DNA of 64,000 nt. It comes from Chloroflexi bacterium CFX4 (GTDB taxonomy: Bacteria; Chloroflexota; Anaerolineae; Aggregatilineales; UBA2796). The notes beneath the pieces were generated by a model that searched no databases, was not told the DNA's origin, and was given only the letters and a program-made list of their open reading frames with translations. Below are positions 49,242 through 56,996 of the stretch, in pieces. Numbering within the stretch: position 1 is the first letter of the stretch; each line of letters opens with the position of its first letter. Both the position numbers and the translations under genes were made by a program. Location: NCBI GenBank assembly GCA_021404685.1, contig QWHC01000009.1, positions 62,001 to 126,000 on the forward strand. Direction: 5' to 3'.

Positions 49242-50680
49242 GGTGACTCCTGCTCACAAGTGATCTGGTAGAGGACGAGCGGCGTGCGCGCAATCGGATT
49301 CAGGCGCGCACCTGCCGCGTTCAGCACGGCAAGCCAGCGCCACGCCAGCGGCTCAGGCGCGGCAAAATAGCTTGGTGTGGGCAGGTTGCACACATCCCGC
49401 GCCAACCACTCTGCGGAAGGATACCAAACCAGTTGGGCGCGTGGCGAATCACCAAGATAGTAGCGCAGTTCCCAGCTCAGCCAGTGGTCATAGATAAGTG
49501 GTGCGCCCTCTAAGGTACGGATGTGCGCCGCCAACTGATCCACGCCGCGAAATAATTCGCTCTGAATGCCGATACTGTGTTCATTCCGCAGCGTTCGCAG
49601 CGTGAAAGGCAACATCAGCGCAAGCGCGGCAAAAATCGCCAGTCGGCTGCGCCACTGCGCCAGGCTGTAGGCGAGCAGCAGTGCCGTTAGTGGCACCAGC
49701 GGCAGCAGGTAACGGTCGTAGATTGGGAAGGCGAGCAGCCAATAGGCAAAGAGCATCGCCAGCAGGCTGCACGCGCTGATCAAGATAACCGTTGCGGCGC
49801 GTGACGGCTGCTGTAGGCAGCGCCACACAGCATAGATCACGATTAACAGCAGCGGCACAAACCCAACGCTCTCGCCATACAGCGCCGACCAACGCGCAAG
49901 GCGCGGCAGCACCTCATCGGAACGGATCAGGCGCAGCGCACCCGGATTTAGCACGCCGAGCGTCCAGAAATCGGCAGGTGCGGCGCGTGCCGCGCTCCAC
50001 CACGCTAAGGCAGCCGCGCCGATAAGGATGGGCAGGCAAAAGCGCCACAGGCTACCCACTGTCAGCCACCTTGCACCGACCACACCGAGCAGGCAATAGA
50101 CGGGTAAGAATTGGACGGCGCTTTGTTTGGTGGCAAGCGCACAGGCAGCCAAAATCCCTGCGCCAAACGGCTGATCGCGGCTGAGGCACAGCGCACAGAG
50201 CAGGCAGCACGCCGTCAGGAGCGGATCGTGAAAGGCGCTGCCGCTGAAGGCGAGATCGAAGGGCGAGAAGGTCATAATGGCTAGGCAAATCAGCGCGGCA
50301 CGCCGATTCAGCAGGCGGCGCGCTAGGGCATAACAGGCACTCACGCTGATCAGGCTGAGGAAAACCGATGGCAGGCGCGCCGCGAACTCGCTTTCACGGA
50401 GCAGGCTGAAACTGAGCGCAGTCAGGAACATGCCAAGCGGCGGCTTATCCAACGGCGCATCGCGCAGCAGCAGATCGCCATACAACGCCATACGCCGCGC
50501 ATAGGTGGCGTAGAGCGCTTCGTCTGGGTGAAAGCGCACATCGTGGCTCAGGATGAGCAGCCGCAACAGCGCAGCGCTCAGCAGCAGGCAAAACAGGCTT
50601 AATTCGTGAAGCGGTAGCGCAGCAGAGTCCAGGCTGCGATGGGTGCGTCCGTCCACTTGATTTTTTTGCCTTCGTGCCAT
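49238..50680 (-). CDS. GT39/ArnT-type membrane glycosyltransferase
   Basis: A 480-residue polytopic membrane protein with about eleven hydrophobic segments. The first extracytoplasmic loop has [16 protein letters not shown] (about residues 49-64), with the acidic pair of lipid-linked-sugar transferases, followed by [13 protein letters not shown], typical of the ArnT/PMT family. It would use a polyprenyl-phosphate sugar, which the GT2 enzyme encoded just upstream is suited to make. The ATG at 50680 overlaps that gene by 82 nt; a GTG at 50656 would cut this to 58. Confidence 0.85.
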
Positions 50681-51279
50681 TCACGCCCATTATAGCTGAT
50701 CGGCACTTCGTAAATGCGGTAGCCGCGCTTCAGCACCTTTGCCGTGATCTCTGGCTCAAATTCAAAGCGGCGCGAACGCAGCTTCATGCCTTGCACCACC
50801 TCTGCCCGAAAGACTTTGTAGCAGGTCTCCATATCGCTCAGGATGGTGTTGTAGAGGATGTTGGTCAGCAGGGTGAGCAGCTTGTTGGCAACCATGTTCC
50901 AAAAGAACATCGTCTTGCGCGGACCGCCCAAAAAGCGTGAGCCGTAAACGACTTTGGCGCGCCCTTCTTCAATCGGCTTGAGCAGAGCAGGATAATCACG
51001 CGGGTCGTATTCCAAATCGGCATCTTGGATGATGAACACATCGCCCGTTGCTGCCGCAAAACCTGTACGCAGTGCCGCGCCCTTGCCCTGATTGTGATCG
51101 TGGTAGATGACGCGCACCTGTGGATCGTCTAGCTTAGCGAGGATATCGCGGGTGCCGTCCGTGGAGCCGTCATCCACAATGATGATCTCGTAGGCAAGGT
51201 TGACTGCCTTGACAGCGGCTAGAATCTGTTCGATTGTGGTCAGTTCGTTGTAGCAGGGAATGATTACAGAGAGCTTCAA
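50599..51279 (-). CDS. GT2 polyprenyl-phosphate glycosyltransferase (DPM1/GtrB-like)
   Basis: A 226-residue soluble GT-A transferase: [56 protein letters not shown], the metal-binding [15 protein letters not shown], and [19 protein letters not shown]. It resembles dolichyl-phosphate mannose synthases without membrane anchor. The start is probably TTG at 51279 (GGTGG about 10 nt upstream); the open frame continues upstream to 51447, but that part covers a REP-like repeat and is unlikely to be coding. Together with the overlapping GT39 it forms a donor-synthesis and transfer pair. Confidence 0.88.
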
Positions 51280-51381
51280 AAGCCTTTTTCCACCTTTTTG
51301 CGAAATAGCGCGGACAGTATAGCGAATGTTGGTGGGTTTGGCTAGGTGCGTGCGGCGCAGGGAAGCACCCCTATCCCGAAT

Positions 51382-51403
51382 CCTTTCCCTGCCCGTAAGG
51401 AAA
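51382..51403. repeat. REP-like intergenic hairpin, copy 7
   Basis: CCTTTCC and GGAAAG flank CTGCCCGTA, preceded by CACCCCTATCCCGAAT. A weaker copy of the family, between the GT2 gene and the arg leader. The whole gap 51280-51684 holds only this and the arg leader elements described below. Confidence 0.55.
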
Positions 51404-51467
51404 GAAGACTCACCCAGCCTTAGCAGCCTCATCGCCTTCAATCGCACCCTTTATGCATTATGCACAA

Positions 51468-51494
51468 TTGACCCTCACCTGCATGGTGTATAAT
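51468..51494 (+). promoter_or_regulatory. arg operon promoter
   Basis: TTGACC (51468-51473) and a perfect TATAAT (51489-51494), 15 bp apart, which is short but acceptable with strong boxes. Transcription would begin near 51501, about 17 nt before the leader peptide ATG. Confidence 0.6.
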
Positions 51495-51517
51495 GGGTGC
51501 TAAGGATTTAACCCAAC

Positions 51518-51598
51518 ATGATTCGTGTTTGCTTTTCCCCGCGCCGTAGCCGCCGTACCACCAGCCATAAGTCTGGATGGACGCTGCGTGCCGCTTAG
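51518..51598 (+). CDS. Arginine-rich leader peptide of the arg operon
   Basis: A 26-codon frame, ATG 51518 to TAG 51598, with AAGGA 11-12 nt before the ATG. Six of 26 codons are Arg, four of them in the cluster CGC-CGT-AGC-CGC-CGT (51542-51556, Arg-Arg-Ser-Arg-Arg at residues 9-13). It lies between the promoter and a strong terminator just before argC. By analogy with his, trp and leu leaders, scarcity of charged tRNA-Arg would stall a ribosome at this cluster. The peptide itself would have no other function. Too short for gene-calling, but its position and composition make it convincing. Confidence 0.8.
   Translation: MIRVCFSPRRSRRTTSHKSGWTLRAA
51558..51580 (+). promoter_or_regulatory. arg attenuator segments 1 and 2 (protector; antiterminator arm)
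   Basis: Segment 1, CCACCAG (51558-51564), can pair with CTGG-a-TGG (51573-51580, one bulge). Segment 2, GTCTGGATGG (51571-51580), can instead pair with CCCTTCAGAC (51618-51627) in the terminator's left arm: nine of ten positions pair, one as G-U. A ribosome stalled on the Arg codons ending at 51556 would cover segment 1 and free segment 2. Confidence 0.7.
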
Positions 51599-51616
51599 CG
51601 GATAAGCAACGCGCAA

Positions 51617-51651
51617 GCCCTTCAGACTGCCCCGTCTGAAGGGCTTTTTTT
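51617..51651 (+). terminator. arg operon attenuator terminator
   Basis: A perfect 11-bp stem, GCCCTTCAGAC (51617-51627) and GTCTGAAGGGC (51634-51644), with a 6-nt loop and seven T (51645-51651). It is one of the strongest intrinsic terminators in the window and lies between promoter and argC, so it must be bypassed for expression. Confidence 0.9.
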
Positions 51652-51684
51652 ATGCACGGTTCTAGGGATAAAGGGATAAACAGC

Positions 51685-52713
51685 TTGGCACACGCACACC
51701 TTGAAACAACACAGACCAAGCCCGCGCAGGCGCTGCGCGTTGGTGTTTTCGGCGCGACGGGCTATACCGGGCAGCTTTTGATTGACCTGCTGCGCGATCA
51801 TCCGCAAGCGGCACTCCATTTCGCTACTTCTGAGCGCGAGGCAGCGCTTGAAGACGGCATGCCGTTGGTGAAGGCAGAGGCTGCGCCACTAGATGCGGTG
51901 GATGTAGTGTTCTTGTGCTTGCCAAACGGCATTTCCGGCGGTGCGGCGGCAAAGGCAACCGCCGCTGGTGTGCGCGTCATTGACCTGAGCGCCGACCTCC
52001 GCCTTGATTCGGTGGCGCTTTACGAGCAAACCTACAAAATGCCGCACCCTGCGCCGCAGTTGCTGCCTGCGCCCTATGGTTTGCCCGAAATCACGCGCCA
52101 CACCTTGAAAGACGTGCCTTATATCGCCAATCCGGGCTGCCACGTGACGGCGGTGCTGCTGGCACTCTATCCACTGGCAAAGGTTGGCGCGCTGAACAAT
52201 GCGCCTATCGTTGCTGATACCAAGACGGGCATCTCTGGCGCCGGCAAAGAGCCAAAACCGGAGTCCATGTTTAGTGAAGTCTATGGCGACGTGAAGCCTT
52301 ACAACATCGGGCGCAAGCATCGGCACGTGCCAGAAATTGAGCAGGCGCTCCATAAATTACAGCCCGATTGCGGCACGCTGATTTTTGCACCGCATCTTGT
52401 GCCGCTAGAAGTTGGCTTGTTGGCAACGGTCTACGCCACGCTTAAGCCGCAGTGGACACTTGAACGCGCCTACGCCGAATATGAGGCAACCTACAGCGCG
52501 GAGCCATTGGTCAAATTGCATCCGTTAGGCAGGGCAGCGCGCATCCGCGAGGCGGCACACCGCAACGGTGCTGTGGTCGGCGTGAGCGAAGGCAGCGGCA
52601 GCACCCTAATCCTGACGTGCGCCATTGATAACTTGCGGAAGGGTGCCTCAGCGCAAGCGGTGCAGAATTTCAATGTGATGTTTGGCTTGCCCGAAACAGC
52701 GGGCTTGCTATGA
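51685..52713 (+). CDS. argC: N-acetyl-gamma-glutamyl-phosphate reductase
   Basis: A 342-residue NADPH-dependent reductase of arginine synthesis, acting on N-acetylglutamyl phosphate. The nucleotide loop is RVGVFGATGYTGQLLIDLL and the catalytic Cys is in YIANPGCHVTAVLLALYPL. Also typical are DLSADLRLD and SGAGKEPKPESMF. I choose the TTG at 51685 with AGGGA 8 nt upstream; an ATG at 51652 directly abuts the terminator T-tract and has no ribosome site. First structural gene of argC-argB-argD-argG. Confidence 0.94.
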   Translation: MAHAHLETTQTKPAQALRVGVFGATGYTGQLLIDLLRDHPQAALHFATSEREAALEDGMPLVKAEAAPLDAVDVVFLCLPNGISGGAAAKATAAGVRVIDLSADLRLDSVALYEQTYKMPHPAPQLLPAPYGLPEITRHTLKDVPYIANPGCHVTAVLLALYPLAKVGALNNAPIVADTKTGISGAGKEPKPESMFSEVYGDVKPYNIGRKHRHVPEIEQALHKLQPDCGTLIFAPHLVPLEVGLLATVYATLKPQWTLERAYAEYEATYSAEPLVKLHPLGRAARIREAAHRNGAVVGVSEGSGSTLILTCAIDNLRKGASAQAVQNFNVMFGLPETAGLL

Positions 52714-52759: not shown

Positions 52760-53506
52760 ATGACAACAACGCTCTATAAAATCGGCGGCGCGCCGCTCGA
52801 AGATGCCGCCTATTTGGCTGCGCTTGCCCAATACTTGAAGGCACTCCACACGCCACCGATCCTTGTGCATGGCGGCGGCAAAGCGATCAGCCGCCTGCAA
52901 ACGGCATTCGGCATTACGCCGCACACAGTGGGCGGGCTGCGCGTTACGGACGAACAGACGATGGCACTGGTGGCGATGGCGCTCATTGGCGCGGCAAACG
53001 TCAACCTAGTGGCAACGTTGGTCAATCACGGTGTGGAGGCGCAAGGCTTTCACGGCGCAGATCGCGGCTTGCTGCGCTCATATCCCATGCAGCATCCAGA
53101 GGGCGATTTAGGGCGTGTGGGCGTCGTGCATACAGTGCGCGCTGAGGTGTTGCAGCAGGCAATTGCGGCGGGCGCGCTGCCCGTCATCGCGCCGATAGCG
53201 CTTGCTGATGACGGCGGCTTGCACAATATCAACGCGGATCAGGCGGCGGGCGCTATCGCGGCGGCGCTGGGCGCTGAAGAAGTCATCTTCTTGACGGATG
53301 TGGCGGGCGTGTTGCAAGAAGGCGCTGTGCTGCCACGGCTAACGCGCTCAGCCGCTGAGGCGCTGATCCGTGAGGGCGTGGCAAGCGGCGGTATGGCGGT
53401 CAAAGTGCGTGCCGCACTGGACGCGCTCTCAGCAGGTGTGCGGGCGGCACGCATCACGGATATTCACGGGTTGGCAAATGGGATCGGGACACAGATCACA
53501 GCATAA
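52760..53506 (+). CDS. argB: Acetylglutamate kinase
   Basis: A 248-residue kinase that phosphorylates N-acetylglutamate. Motifs: YKIGGAPLED at the first strand, PILVHGGGKAISRLQTAFG, the aspartate in GLHNINADQAAGAIAAAL, and ASGGMAVKVRAALDAL. The chain starts directly at the first beta strand, without the N-terminal helix found in arginine-inhibited hexameric enzymes. This resembles the short E. coli form, so feedback inhibition by arginine may be absent. It follows argC by 46 nt. Confidence 0.93.
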   Translation: MTTTLYKIGGAPLEDAAYLAALAQYLKALHTPPILVHGGGKAISRLQTAFGITPHTVGGLRVTDEQTMALVAMALIGAANVNLVATLVNHGVEAQGFHGADRGLLRSYPMQHPEGDLGRVGVVHTVRAEVLQQAIAAGALPVIAPIALADDGGLHNINADQAAGAIAAALGAEEVIFLTDVAGVLQEGAVLPRLTRSAAEALIREGVASGGMAVKVRAALDALSAGVRAARITDIHGLANGIGTQITA

Positions 53507-53518
53507 GAAAGGCAAACT

Positions 53519-54724
53519 ATGGACTTCGCACGGGATTTAACGGCAGCCGAGATCATGGCGCTTGGTGAGGCGCACATCGTCAAGACCTACAAGCGTGCGC
53601 CGATGGTGCTTTCGCACGGGCGCGGCGTGCAAACATGGGATACGGAAGGGCGCGAATACCTCGACTTTGCAGCGGGCATCGCTGTGAACGCGCTTGGTCA
53701 CGCCGATGCAGGCATGGTCGCAGTGCTGGCAGAACAGGCAGCCAAACTGACGCACACTAGCAACTTATACTACAGTCTGCCACAGATTGCGCTTGCCGAA
53801 AAGCTAACAGCGCACAGCTTCGCGGATCGCGTCTTTTTCACCAACAGCGGCACGGAAGCCAATGAGGCGGCGATCAAGTTTGCGCGTAAGTATGCGCGGG
53901 CAGCGCACAACGCAGCCGATAAGACGCAGATCGCCTGCTTTGATCATGCCTTTCACGGGCGCACGATGGGATCGCTCTCCCTGACGCCTAAAGAGGCATA
54001 CCAAGCACCGTTCCGTCCGCTGGTGCCGGATGTGATCGTCCTACCGTTTAACGACAGCGCCGCGCTTGAGCAGATCACAGAGCGCACTTGTGCCGTGTTC
54101 ATCGAGCCGATTCAGGGTGAGGGCGGCATTCACGCGGCAACGCCTGACTTTTTGCGTGCGCTGCGAGCGCGTTGCGATCAGGTGGGCGCGCTGCTGGTCT
54201 TTGATGAGGTGCAGTGCGGCTTGGGGCGCACCGGTGATCTATGGGCGCACACGATAAGCGGCATCACGCCGGATATGATGACGCTTGCCAAGCCACTGGC
54301 AGGCGGCTTGCCGATTGGCGCGCTCTTGGCGACCGAATCAGTTGCCGCAGCGCTCAGCTATGGCGATCACGGCAGCACGTTTGCCGGCAGCCCGCTGATC
54401 ACGGCGGTGGCGAACCATGTCTTTGATCGGATCAGCGCGCCGCATTTCCTTGCCCATGTGAAAGAGGTGGGCAGCTACCTGAAAGAGCGCCTAGAGGAGA
54501 TCAACAGCCCGAAGATCAAAGAGGTGCGCGGACGTGGGCTGATGCTTGGCGTCGAATTCACGGGCGATCTGGCGGGCAGTGTGGTGGAGCAGGGCTACGC
54601 GCACGGCTTGCTGCTGGTCGGTTCTGGCACGAACGTACTGCGCGTCATTCCGCCACTGATTGTCAGTGAGCGCGAATGTGATAGTTTTGCCGACCGCCTG
54701 ACCGCAATCTTGGCGAAGGTGTAA
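53519..54724 (+). CDS. argD: Acetylornithine aminotransferase
   Basis: A 401-residue PLP-dependent class III aminotransferase converting N-acetylglutamate semialdehyde to N-acetylornithine. Evidence: FFTNSGTEANEAAIKFARKY (phosphate-binding loop), HAFHGRTMGSLSLT, LLVFDEVQCGLGRTGDLWA and the Lys in MMTLAKPLAGGLPIGALLAT. AAAGG lies 6 nt before the ATG, 12 nt after argB. No LysW carrier gene is present, so a lysine-pathway role is unlikely. Confidence 0.94.
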   Translation: MDFARDLTAAEIMALGEAHIVKTYKRAPMVLSHGRGVQTWDTEGREYLDFAAGIAVNALGHADAGMVAVLAEQAAKLTHTSNLYYSLPQIALAEKLTAHSFADRVFFTNSGTEANEAAIKFARKYARAAHNAADKTQIACFDHAFHGRTMGSLSLTPKEAYQAPFRPLVPDVIVLPFNDSAALEQITERTCAVFIEPIQGEGGIHAATPDFLRALRARCDQVGALLVFDEVQCGLGRTGDLWAHTISGITPDMMTLAKPLAGGLPIGALLATESVAAALSYGDHGSTFAGSPLITAVANHVFDRISAPHFLAHVKEVGSYLKERLEEINSPKIKEVRGRGLMLGVEFTGDLAGSVVEQGYAHGLLLVGSGTNVLRVIPPLIVSERECDSFADRLTAILAKV

Positions 54725-54794: not shown

Positions 54795-56069
54795 ATGTCC
54801 CGACAGCATCCGCAGTATAAAAAAGTCATCCTCGCCTACAGTGGCGGTCTGGATACGTCCGTGATCGTCCCATGGCTGCGCGAAACCTATAACGTCGAAG
54901 TGATCTGCTTCACCGCCGATCTCGGTCAGCAGGAAGAACTGGATGGGCTGGACGAGAAGGCGAAGAAAAGCGGCGCCAGCAAGCTGATCATCCGCGATTT
55001 GCGCCGCGAATTCCTCACCGATTTCATCCTGCCGACGCTGCGCGCTGGCGCGATCTATGAGCGCGACTACCTGCTTGGCACGTCGTTCGCACGCCCACTG
55101 ATCGCCAAGCACATGGTGGAAGTGGCAGAACAAGAAGGCGCAGACGCCGTGGCGCACGGCGCGACGGGCAAGGGCAACGATCAGGTGCGCTTTGAGGTCA
55201 GCGTGATGGCGCTCAATCCGAAGTTAGGCATCATTGCGCCATGGCGCGATGACAAGTGGTTCATCCGCAGCCGTGAGGATGCCGTTGAATATGCTGAAGA
55301 ACGTGGCATCCCAATCAGTGCGACGCTCAAATCCATCTACAGCCGTGACCGCAACCTGTTCCACATGAGCCATGAAGGCGGCTTGCTGGAGAATCCTTGG
55401 GCAAAGCCTGAGGAGAGCATGTTCACGCTGACAACCAGCCCACAAACTGCCCCTGATCACACCGAGTCCGTTGAGATCAGCTTTAAGGAAGGCGTGCCAG
55501 TTGCCCTTGACGGTGCGCCAATGGATATTCTCGAGTTGTTCATCGCCCTGAACGACTTGGGCGCAAAGCACGGCATTGGGCGCGTGGATATGGTTGAAAA
55601 TCGGCTGGTTGGCATGAAATCACGCGGCGTTTACGAGACGCCCGGCGGCACAATCCTCTACAAAGCGCATCAGGCGTTGGAGAGCATCTGCCTTGATAAG
55701 GCAACTCTGCATACCAAACTCAGCCTAGCGATCAAATATGCCGAATTGGTCTATAATGGGCAGTGGTATAGCACCCTGCGTGAGGCACTGGACGCCTTTG
55801 TGAGCATCACGCAGCGCACCATGACCGGCGATGTGCGGCTCGAACTTTACAAGGGCAACGTGATCGTCAGCGGACGGCGTTCGCCCTTCAGCCTCTACCG
55901 TGAGGACTACGCTTCATTCGGGCAAATGGATGTCTACGACCAGCAAGATGCGGAAGGCTTCATCAACTTGTTTGGCTTACCCAACAAGATCGAGGCGCTC
56001 ATCGCGCAAGAAGGTGGCGGGCGCAGCCGCTACGCCTCGCCGGATTACAGCCGCTTCAAGCGCGATTAA
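54795..56069 (+). CDS. argG: Argininosuccinate synthase
   Basis: A 424-residue enzyme joining citrulline and aspartate with ATP. The ATP pyrophosphatase loop is [17 protein letters not shown]; further blocks are [37 protein letters not shown], and [22 protein letters not shown]. It follows argD by 70 nt and is probably cotranscribed. argF, argH, argJ and argA are not in the window. A GC hairpin 37 nt after the stop likely ends the transcript. Confidence 0.95.
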
Positions 56070-56105: not shown

Positions 56106-56126
56106 GGGCGGGATGAATCCCGCCCC
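56106..56126. terminator. GC-rich hairpin between argG and dcd
   Basis: GGGCGGGA and TCCCGCCC pair perfectly around a short loop, between convergent argG and dcd. No T-tract follows. The same kind of hairpin occurs at 58886, 60853 and 63114. Confidence 0.55.
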
Positions 56127-56686
56127 TACTCTACACGCGGCAGCGTCACGCCGGTTTGCCCCTGATATTTGCCCTTGCGCTGTGCGTAGTTCACTTCGCA
56201 AACCTCATCGCCTTGCAAGAACAGGACTTGCCCAATGCCTTCATTGGCATAGATAACGGCGGGCAGCGGCGTTGTGTTGGAAATCTCTAATGTGATGAAG
56301 CCTTCCCAAGCTGGCTCTAGCGGCGTGACGTTCAGCACCAAGCCACAGCGCGCATAGGTGCTTTTGCCCATCACAATGGCGAGCGTATCCGACGGCATAC
56401 GGAAGTATTCCACTGTGCGCCCAAGCGCAAACGAATTCGGCGGAATGATGCAGCGCTCACCCTGAAAGACGATCATGGAGCGTTCGTCCATCGCCTTCGG
56501 ATCGACAACGGTGTTGTACGGATTAGGCGTGAAGATGCGAAACTCATCGGCGATGCGAATATCATAGCCATAGCTGGAAAGCCCATAGCTGATGACGCTG
56601 CCGCGCACTTGTTCCGCCACAAAAGGCGTGATCATGGCGTGTTCTTGCGCCATATGGCGTATCCAGCGATCTGCTTTAAGTCCCAT
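56126..56686 (-). CDS. dcd: dCTP deaminase
   Basis: A 186-residue trimeric deaminase (dUTPase fold) making dUTP, or dUMP in bifunctional forms. Characteristic segments are [38 protein letters not shown], and [20 protein letters not shown] with [20 protein letters not shown]. The Glu of the catalytic site is in [11 protein letters not shown]. The ATG at 56686 is where homologues start; the frame extends upstream into xisI. It starts four bases past the XisI stop, so the two are probably coupled. Confidence 0.94.
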
Positions 56687-56690
56687 AAGG

Positions 56691-56996
56691 TTAGGTCTGC
56701 TCCGTTGGAATCGACTCACCTGCATATGCCAAAACAATATTGGTGCGTGGAATGCCCGCCCGCACCAGTGCATCCACAATAGGGCGATCTGTGAGGTCTT
56801 CCTCAACAATTACTTTATCATTTTCGAGACGCACCAAAATAGCAAAGCTGGCAGGGCGCTTATGCACAGGATAATCTACAATTGCCACAGCATAGACGCC
56901 TTGCGCTTCATTTGCTAACGGATAGGCGCGTAAATCAAGCCCACCACCTGCATAACTAAGCACGATTTGCTGCACAACATCGGCTAGTTGATCCAT
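56691..56996 (-). CDS. XisI-family protein without a XisH partner
   Basis: A 101-residue protein resembling XisI, one of the factors controlling fdxN-element excision in heterocyst-forming cyanobacteria. The match rests on [20 protein letters not shown], then [18 protein letters not shown], close to the XisI pattern of a D/N-G-K-I strand followed by L-V-x-A-G-[IV]-P-x-x-x-I-V-L. A very strong Shine-Dalgarno (AGGAGGAGG, seven nt spacing) precedes the ATG. XisI genes usually follow xisH; here argS lies upstream, so this copy is solitary. In non-cyanobacteria the role is unknown. Confidence 0.7.

What the first reader, a model, noticed from the sequence alone, without database searches (positions are those of the whole stretch)
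51468..51685. Arginine operon preceded by a complete ribosome-mediated attenuator
Between a TTGACC/TATAAT promoter and argC lies a 26-codon ORF with four Arg codons in five (51542-51556), followed by mutually exclusive RNA pairings. Segment 1 (51558-51564) pairs with segment 2 (51571-51580); segment 2 pairs with segment 3 (51618-51627, nine of ten positions); segment 3 pairs with segment 4 in a perfect 11-bp terminator plus T7 (51617-51651). A ribosome stalled at the Arg cluster would cover segment 1 and free segment 2. One at the stop codon would reach about 51611, leaving the terminator free to form. Known bacterial examples are for his, trp, leu, ilv, thr and phe; bacterial arg operons are usually controlled by ArgR. 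I know of no characterised arginine version, so it may be new, but I cannot check the literature.
Basis: partly seen in the sequence, partly recalled or inferred. Interest (0 to 1): 0.95.

Follow-up and report, generated by a model that had tools for sequence, protein, structure and literature searches.

The report
Arginine-sensing attenuator before argC operon
In this uncultured Chloroflexota bacterium and most of the relatives examined, the arginine-synthesis operon is preceded by a short arginine-rich reading frame and mutually exclusive RNA hairpins that are predicted to let a ribosome short of arginine switch the operon on, likely in place of the usual repressor ArgR, which our searches did not find in its order or class.

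Summary
A 26-codon ORF (MIRVCFSPRRSRRTTSHKSGWTLRAA) and a 13-pair terminator precede argC-argB-argD-argG. Of 123 argC upstream regions from the order, 114 have a terminator, and 101 of these an ORF with at least 4 Arg in 6 codons just before it (dinucleotide shuffles: mean 3.3, maximum 8); no other amino acid exceeds 6 of 114. Antiterminator and terminator coevolve: each leader pairs better with its own terminator arm than with swapped arms (-19.7 vs -16.0 kcal/mol, sd 0.27). Eleven regions lacked it; in three the leader lies one gene further upstream, eight remain without. Weaker versions occur across the class and in two families outside it. ArgR was found in 0 of 151 order-level and 0 of 298 class-level genomes but in 52 of 251 across the phylum, not in any genome where I saw the attenuator. 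In the same lineage trpE carries T-boxes (8 of 8) and argC none (0 of 20). I found no paper on an arginine biosynthetic attenuator (open-access library; one likely survey not held). Mechanism: classical ribosome-mediated transcription attenuation with a new amino-acid specificity. Expression and arginine response are untested.

The parts
51468..51494 (+). Predicted promoter: -35 TTGACC (51468-51473), 15-nt spacer, -10 TATAAT (51489-51494)
   Evidence: Sequence; same boxes readable in four congeners. Across the order, 89 of 112 leaders have a 9-of-12 or better promoter match (spacers 15-18) within 90 nt upstream, shuffles mean 9.8. Start site not mapped.
51502..51506 (+). Shine-Dalgarno-like AAGGA before the leader ORF
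   Evidence: Sequence; GAGGA-type sites before the leader ATG in the four congeners
51518..51598 (+). Leader ORF, 26 codons, MIRVCFSPRRSRRTTSHKSGWTLRAA
   Evidence: counterparts with at least 4 Arg in 6 codons in 101 of 114, and at least 3 in 112 of 114, terminator-bearing argC upstream regions of the order
51542..51556 (+). Regulatory Arg codons CGC CGT AGC CGC CGT
   Evidence: Arg codons of 112 leaders: CGT 42.8%, CGC 39.8%, AGG 9.6%, CGG 2.7% (n 656); argC genes of the same loci CGT 12.4%, CGC 50.9%, CGG 22.4% (n 927)
51558..51564 (+). Segment 1 (pairs with segment 2)
   Evidence: Folds; 1:2 permutation over 112 leaders, own -11.65 vs -9.28 kcal/mol, sd 0.24
51570..51582 (+). Segment 2 (antiterminator 5' strand; pairs with 1 or 3)
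   Evidence: Constrained fold; covariation; permutation
51585..51615 (+). Internal hairpin inside the antiterminator loop, spanning the leader stop codon; would be blocked by a ribosome at the stop
   Evidence: Folds
51618..51627 (+). Segment 3 (terminator 5' arm, alternative partner of segment 2)
51615..51651 (+). Intrinsic terminator: 3:4 stem 51615-51646 and T tract 51645-51651
   Evidence: 13 pairs, 7 GC; -22.7 kcal/mol; 3:4 covariation
51685..52713 (+). argC, N-acetyl-gamma-glutamyl-phosphate reductase (TTG start inferred)
   Evidence: NCBIfam TIGR01850, 310.9 bits, cut-off 233.6
52760..53506 (+). argB, acetylglutamate kinase
   Evidence: TIGR00761, 212.8 bits, cut-off 151.3
53519..54724 (+). 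argD, acetylornithine transaminase
   Evidence: TIGR00707, 469.5 bits, cut-off 410.05
54795..56069 (+). argG, argininosuccinate synthase
   Evidence: NF001770, 601 bits, cut-off 334

Best explanation
The 51468-51685 region encodes an Arg-rich leader ORF, mutually exclusive RNA helices and an intrinsic terminator in front of argCBDG, and it is predicted to work as a ribosome-mediated transcription attenuator that senses charged tRNA-Arg. Inferred steps: (1) with enough arginine the ribosome would read through the Arg codons to the stop at 51596, cover about 51580-51610 and keep segment 2 from segment 3, so the 3:4 terminator forms and transcription stops near 51651; (2) with little charged tRNA-Arg the ribosome would stall on codons 9-13, leaving segment 2 free to pair with segment 3 as soon as it is transcribed, so RNA polymerase passes into argC; (3) with no translation the 5' leader folds on itself, including 1:2, and the terminator forms by default. 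Shown here by sequence and computation: the ORF, codon cluster, helices, their conservation and coevolution, and that ArgR was not found in the order or class. It likely serves as the arginine-responsive control of the operon in a lineage without ArgR.
For: Codons: 101 of 114 terminator-bearing regions (of 123 examined) have at least 4 Arg in 6 codons ending within 75 nt of the stem; shuffles mean 3.3, maximum 8; next amino acid Pro, 6 of 114. 2:3 helix: duplex p of 0.05 or less in 77 of 112 leaders, 5.6 expected; own terminator arm -19.71 vs permuted mean -16.03, sd 0.27, minimum -16.96 in 2000 permutations; own-arm residual negative in 102 of 112; on 19 aligned leaders of families f1 and f8, 90.0% of 2:3 cells pair (at most 56% when slid), 22 cells with two-sided change against 11.5 shuffled. 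3:4: 93.2%, 8 of 10 pairs with two-sided change. 1:2 permutation -11.65 vs -9.28, sd 0.24. Geometry: segment 2 starts a median 13 nt after the last clustered Arg codon; stop to stem median 30 nt. Three-state folding agrees. Covariance model: one match in the own genome at E 0.05 or less, at argC (E 5e-8), and three apparent exceptions (G124, G142, G147) carry the leader one gene upstream of argC. ArgR PF02863: 0 of 151 and 0 of 298, controls ring in 8 of 14. Specificity: argJ 0 of 11 and argF 0 of 10 have an Arg leader with terminator. T-box alternative: 8 of 8 trpE loci match the Rfam T-box, 0 of 20 argC loci do.
Against: No expression data. At equilibrium the full-length RNA prefers the terminator in every state tested, so antitermination must be kinetic, as recalled for trp. 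35 of 112 leaders have no individually significant 2:3 duplex, and 1:2 is individually significant in only 38 of 112. The own arm is the best family match for 5 of 7 families only (f4 leaders pair better with the f7 arm, f5 equally with f1 arms), and relatedness reduces the effective sample to a few family-level changes. In one search the number of pairs with two-sided change (4) and of further pair types (12) does not exceed shuffles (4.3 and 11.8). 8 of 123 order members lack a visible leader (G143, G126 whose contig ends early, G051, G118, G096, G137, G075, G148). Class-wide the Arg clusters are weaker: at least 4 in 6 in 14 of 54, at least 3 in 37 of 54 (best over all terminators), against about 19% by chance for at least 3 in the order set (shuffles).
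Confidence: 0.87

Rival explanations
1. The leader peptide is an arrest peptide: a poly-basic nascent chain or free arginine stalls the ribosome in the exit tunnel, as in the fungal arginine attenuator peptide (recalled), so the signal is not tRNA charging.
For: Arg-rich nascent chains can slow ribosomes (general knowledge). Arginine-linked leader peptides exist (PMC6386406 passages; PMC13009471 passages).
Against: Outside the Arg run the peptide changes from family to family (for example ...RRRSRRPQTTEVMPGFLCWS...RRPRRRPVLPMEGPA...RRERRSRPTQMRFETRFCVG), whereas arrest peptides need defined residues (general knowledge). Synonymous choice is skewed to CGT/CGC away from CGG, which an arrest peptide would not require, although RNA pairing could contribute. 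Arrest by excess arginine on the cluster would antiterminate, the wrong sign for a biosynthetic operon (inference).
Confidence: 0.06
2. A trans-acting RNA-binding protein, riboswitch ligand or uncharged tRNA (T-box type) sets the 2:3 versus 3:4 choice, and the ORF is incidental.
For: Terminator and antiterminator are real and could be read by other factors; T-boxes are used in this very lineage, on trpE (8 of 8).
Against: The same Rfam search that finds the trpE T-boxes finds none on 20 of 20 argC loci or in the window; at relaxed threshold only one wrong-strand match, E 0.052. The most conserved part is a run of in-frame Arg codons at a short distance from segment 2.
Confidence: 0.03
3. The leader reports translation in general (any starvation or ribosome slowing) rather than arginine.
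For: In the fold model any stall before segment 2 would favour the antiterminator.
Against: Only Arg codons cluster in these ORFs (101 of 114, against at most 6 of 114 for any other amino acid); argJ and argF have no such leader and ilvB and trpE no comparable amino-acid-rich ORF.
Confidence: 0.03
4. The hairpin only ends upstream transcription or insulates argC, and the operon starts from a promoter after 51651.
For: Terminators between operons are common; start sites are unmapped.
Against: The gene upstream (50599-51447) lies on the other strand, so nothing there needs terminating; a sigma-70-like promoter precedes the leader ORF in 89 of 112; terminator and argC are often only about 30 nt apart, too short for another promoter.
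Confidence: 0.01

Closest known systems
Classical leader-peptide attenuators of trp, his, leu, thr, ilv and phe operons (his also in some Firmicutes, PMC9413887 passages)
   Same: Leader ORF rich in the codon of the pathway's product, protector / antiterminator / intrinsic terminator, operon for that amino acid
   Different: Codon is arginine; lineage is Chloroflexota; no Rfam leader model matches. PMC1262725 (passage) found no arginine element in Actinobacteria and names T-boxes for arginine elsewhere.
speF orf34 leader of Salmonella (PMC6386406; passages read)
   Same: A leader ORF with two consecutive Arg codons; ribosome pausing under low arginine changes the downstream RNA fold
   Different: Controls ornithine decarboxylase, not arginine synthesis; works through Rho-dependent termination, translation and RNase G decay; the authors found no intrinsic terminator
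rbfL leader peptide of Staphylococcus aureus (PMC13009471; passages read)
   Same: Short uORF that senses arginine limitation through Arg codons
   Different: Eight residues with two Arg codons; blocks the downstream ribosome-binding site (translation, not transcription); lowers a biofilm regulator when arginine is short, the opposite sign
ArgR/AhrC repression of arg operons
   Same: End-product control of the same genes (general knowledge)
   Different: DNA-binding protein; its C-terminal domain was not found in 151 order-level or 298 class-level genomes
T-box leaders (here on trpE of 8 of 8 genomes of this order)
   Same: Transcription antitermination that reads tRNA charging
   Different: Reads uncharged tRNA directly, without a translated leader; no T-box match on 20 argC loci
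uORFC-8-2 cysS attenuator of Rhodobacterales (PMC8632094 passages)
   Same: Comparative-genomics candidate of ribosome-mediated attenuation with tandem cognate codons
   Different: Cysteine codons before a tRNA synthetase gene

Membership tests
Ribosome-mediated transcription attenuator (leader-peptide type) | Short ORF with clustered codons for the operon's product | tested here: met
   RRSRR at codons 9-13; at least 4 Arg in 6 in 101 of 114 regions
Ribosome-mediated transcription attenuator (leader-peptide type) | Intrinsic terminator between leader ORF and first structural gene | tested here: met
   114 of 123
Ribosome-mediated transcription attenuator (leader-peptide type) | Antiterminator (2:3) that excludes the terminator and is conserved | tested here: met
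   (computational)
Ribosome-mediated transcription attenuator (leader-peptide type) | Protector (1:2) helix downstream of the regulatory codons | tested here: met
   Permutation; locally significant in only 38 of 112, and not strictly needed in the fold model
Ribosome-mediated transcription attenuator (leader-peptide type) | Downstream genes make the same amino acid | tested here: met
   argC, argB, argD, argG
Ribosome-mediated transcription attenuator (leader-peptide type) | Leader is translated and read-through depends on charged tRNA-Arg | not testable with these tools
   No expression data
T-box riboswitch | Match to the Rfam T-box model | tested here: not met
   0 of 20 argC loci and none in the window; positive control 8 of 8 trpE loci
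speF orf34 leader | Located before an ornithine decarboxylase gene, no intrinsic terminator | tested here: not met
   argC downstream and an intrinsic terminator present
ArgR regulon | ArgR present in the genome | tested here: not met
   PF02863 in 0 of 151 and 0 of 298 genomes, controls ring in 8 of 14; only the C-terminal domain was searched

The most novel reading that the evidence does not exclude
A previously undescribed class of attenuator, the arginine biosynthetic leader, is the main arginine control of an entire bacterial class (Anaerolineae) and of two families outside it, and stands in for ArgR: the two were not seen together in any genome examined for both. Its strong CGU/CGC codon skew tunes it to one isoacceptor, tRNA-Arg(ICG).
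Probability: 0.6. Interest if true: 0.8.

Novelty: new variant of a known kind. Interest (0 to 1): 0.74.

Why it matters
Leader-peptide attenuation is a textbook mechanism, but arginine, where ArgR or T-boxes do the job elsewhere, is not on the list of its biosynthetic operons as far as I could find. Here it is widespread and apparently stands in for a repressor across a large, mostly uncultured class, in genomes that use a T-box for tryptophan. It gives a simple, testable regulatory prediction for organisms with almost no genetics, shows how transcription attenuation can take over from a repressor, and its skewed synonymous Arg codons offer a natural test of selective tRNA charging theory (Elf and Ehrenberg, PMC1183508, passages read).

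Tried and rejected
T-box or other known RNA: no Rfam match in the window, none but a tRNA on 20 argC loci, one wrong-strand match with E 0.052 at relaxed threshold. Other arg genes: argJ (11 genomes) and argF (10, plus one paralogue; G004 with only 221 nt upstream) show no Arg leader with terminator; carAB and argH were not examined. Other amino acids: trpE is under a T-box; ilvB has a terminator in 5 of 8 but no ORF with 4 or more of Ile/Leu/Val in 6 codons beside it, and no Rfam match. Error found on re-checking: loci from the genome search are in contig orientation, so the argJ/argF/ilvB/trpE parts and the look at L323 and L325 read minus-strand loci the wrong way; redid them and only it is used here (the argC analyses oriented each locus by tblastn). 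Weak covariance-model hits away from argC: L325, L327 and L328 look like chance; L323 (G007, E 7.8e-5) precedes a cysK-like gene, not argC; L326, L329, L330 and L331 were not inspected. That search scored 150 of 310-2756 candidates per genome, so it is not exhaustive. The alignment of all families (A1) puts f2 one column out of register with f1 and f8, so covariation was counted on f1+f8 only (A2, 19 of 112 sequences). Rows dropped: of 136 genomes with an argC match, 13 were left out (11 whose best match was only paralogue-like, best E 4e-26 to 3e-44 or so, and partial G100 and G039), leaving 123; 112 of these entered the pairing tests. For L165 the scripts took a wrong-frame GTG ORF; it was kept in all counts. 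Literature: ten searches (one search listed 20 of 32 papers and 25 of 61) showed no arginine biosynthetic attenuator; Lopatovskaya et al. 2010, a survey of attenuation in bacteria seen only as a citation, is not held and could contain one.

Full report
WHAT IS THERE. The window is a stretch of a 4.35-Mb genome (G000). Between a divergent glycosyltransferase-like gene (50599-51447, minus strand) and argC-argB-argD-argG lie a TTGACC/15 nt/TATAAT promoter, a 26-codon ORF, and a terminator of 13 pairs with T7. The coordinates in the finding are correct; the promoter spacer is 15 nt and argC probably starts at TTG 51685.

IS IT MORE THAN CHANCE. In one search, 136 of 151 genomes of the order have an ArgC match; I examined the upstream regions of 123 (13 dropped, see Tried and rejected). 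114 of 123 have an intrinsic terminator within 420 nt. Of these, 101 have an ORF with at least 4 Arg in 6 codons that stops within 75 nt of the stem, and 112 have at least 3. In 100 dinucleotide-preserving shuffles the counts are 3.3 (maximum 8) and 22.1 (maximum 35). The same test for every other amino acid gives at most 6 of 114 (Pro). Between families the peptides share little apart from the Arg run.

THE ALTERNATIVE PAIRINGS. Segment 2 differs between families and segment 3 changes with it: f1 GTCTGG/CCAGAC, f2 GAGGTC/GACCTC, f4 GGTCCGG/CCGGACC, f8 GAGGTTCG/CGAACCTC. Permuting terminator arms among 112 leaders raises the mean duplex energy from -19.71 to -16.03 kcal/mol (sd 0.27; best of 2000 permutations -16.96); after removing row and column effects 102 of 112 leaders prefer their own arm, and the own arm is the best family match in 5 of 7 families. 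On a structure-blind alignment of the 19 f1 and f8 leaders, the 8-bp 2:3 helix pairs in 90.0% of cells (at most 56% when slid), with C-G to U-A and U-A to C-G double changes at columns 41/115 and 42/114, and the 3:4 helix changes in step at 115/136 and 114/137, so three strands covary. The number of pairs with a two-sided change does not exceed shuffles for 2:3 (4 vs 4.3), though cells (22 vs 11.5) and the covariation score (0.464 vs 0.322) do. The 1:2 helix is supported by a permutation test (-11.65 vs -9.28, sd 0.24) but is individually significant in only 38 of 112.

GEOMETRY AND THREE STATES. Segment 2 begins a median 13 nt (quartiles 10-16) after the last clustered Arg codon, about where a ribosome stalled there would end (footprint size from general knowledge). 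Constrained folding of the own leader: with the ribosome on codon 9, 12 or 13 and RNA made up to 51630, the best fold is the 2:3 antiterminator (-28.3); with the ribosome at the stop, or with none, segment 3 is unpaired and the terminator forms. Once segment 4 is made the terminator is the equilibrium fold in every state tested, so antitermination would be kinetic. Stalling at codon 9 leaves segment 1 exposed and still favours 2:3, so the 1:2 helix would matter mainly in the untranslated leader.

HOW FAR IT REACHES. Class: in 54 further argC regions from other orders, 49 have a terminator and 37 an ORF with at least 3 Arg in 6 (14 at least 4), many with CCAGAC-type arms. Phylum: of 40 argC regions outside the class, 11 have any terminator, 6 an ORF with at least 3 and 4 with at least 4 Arg in 6; the four are from families f82 and f108, for example MLTNLFSPALRLRRPRTNEVRWACAVCAA, whose argC follows directly (L324). 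Exceptions within the order: 11 of 123 lacked the leader; a covariance model finds it one gene upstream of argC in G124, G142 and G147, leaving 8 without a visible leader. In the own genome the model has a single match at E 0.05 or less, at argC (150 of 1025 candidates scored).

WHAT ELSE COULD CONTROL THE OPERON. The ArgR C-terminal domain (PF02863) is found in 0 of 151 order genomes and 0 of 298 class genomes, with 8 of 14 control genomes positive. In the phylum sample it is in 52 of 251 genomes, all outside the class and none in f82 or f108; among the 40 phylum loci, 4 have the attenuator only, 6 ArgR only, 30 neither and none both. In several ArgR genomes the argR match lies a few kb from argC on the same contig (G460, G508, G610). 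T-boxes are in use here: 8 of 8 trpE loci from eight genomes of this order match the Rfam T-box, but none of 20 argC loci does. argJ (0 of 11) and argF (0 of 10) have no Arg leader with terminator, and ilvB (8 loci) has no branched-chain-rich ORF before its terminators. So tRNA charging for tryptophan and for arginine appears to be read by two different devices in the same cells.

CODON CHOICE. Leader Arg codons are CGT 42.8%, CGC 39.8%, AGG 9.6%, CGG 2.7% (656 codons); argC genes of the same loci, as far as fetched, CGT 12.4%, CGC 50.9%, CGG 22.4% (927). In family f5 argC uses CGG for 64% of 22 Arg codons and the leaders for none of 19. CGT and CGC are read by tRNA-Arg(ICG) (general knowledge), so the skew fits isoacceptor-specific sensing as modelled by Elf and Ehrenberg (passages); RNA-structure constraints could also contribute.

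WHAT IS KNOWN. Ten full-text searches of the open-access library showed no arginine biosynthetic attenuator (two of the listings were cut). PMC1262725 (passage) reports none in Actinobacteria and names T-boxes for arginine elsewhere. Arginine-sensing leader peptides are known for speF (passages) and rbfL (passages), with other mechanisms and targets. A survey by Lopatovskaya et al. 2010 could not be read. I therefore call it a new variant of a known kind: the mechanism is classical, while the amino acid, the lineage and the apparent replacement of ArgR are new as far as I could search.

Noticed in passing
leaders of 112 loci, e.g. window 51542-51556: Arg codons in the leaders are mostly CGT/CGC (83%) and avoid CGG, even in families whose argC genes use CGG often.
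   Followed up: partly
L264-L271, upstream of trpE (G000:C30 included): trpE of all 8 genomes looked at is preceded by an Rfam T-box, so this order uses T-boxes for tryptophan and a leader peptide for arginine.
   Followed up: yes
L258, L259, L260, L262, upstream of ilvB: Four own-genus genomes share a conserved terminator-like hairpin about 50-60 nt before ilvB with no amino-acid-rich ORF and no Rfam match; function unknown.
   Followed up: partly
L323 (G007:C629:2372-2479, minus strand): The arginine model hits a leader-like region with a terminator before a DUF4395-like and a cysK-like gene (named by eye); an overlapping frame there reads Cys codons (YACMACMC), possibly another attenuator.
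   Followed up: no
L315, L313, L314 (G124, G142, G147): A gene of 1-1.5 kb sits between the leader and argC; in G124 it looks by eye like an LLM-class oxidoreductase (no family search was run).
   Followed up: partly
G460, G508, G610 (other classes of the phylum): In clades with ArgR, the argR match lies a few kb from argC on the same contig.
   Followed up: partly
phylum sample, e.g. families f72 and f67: 30 of 40 argC loci outside the class show neither the attenuator nor ArgR in the genome; their arginine control is unknown.
   Followed up: no
L243 (G000:C1) versus L236, L237, L241, L242: argJ lies within about 3-4 kb of argC on the same contig in G055, G018, G017 and G013 (f2, f8, f4) but on another contig in the own genome, with no leader of its own.
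   Followed up: partly
second matches, about 40% identity, e.g. G088:C7, G006:C1:172196-173200: Many genomes carry a second, more distant ArgC-like protein, possibly for another pathway.
   Followed up: no
L135, L148, L150 (genus g36): Three relatives lack leader and terminator but show a similar long region before argC, perhaps a different control element.
   Followed up: no
window 56126-56809, minus strand: A dCTP deaminase gene follows argG convergently.
   Followed up: no
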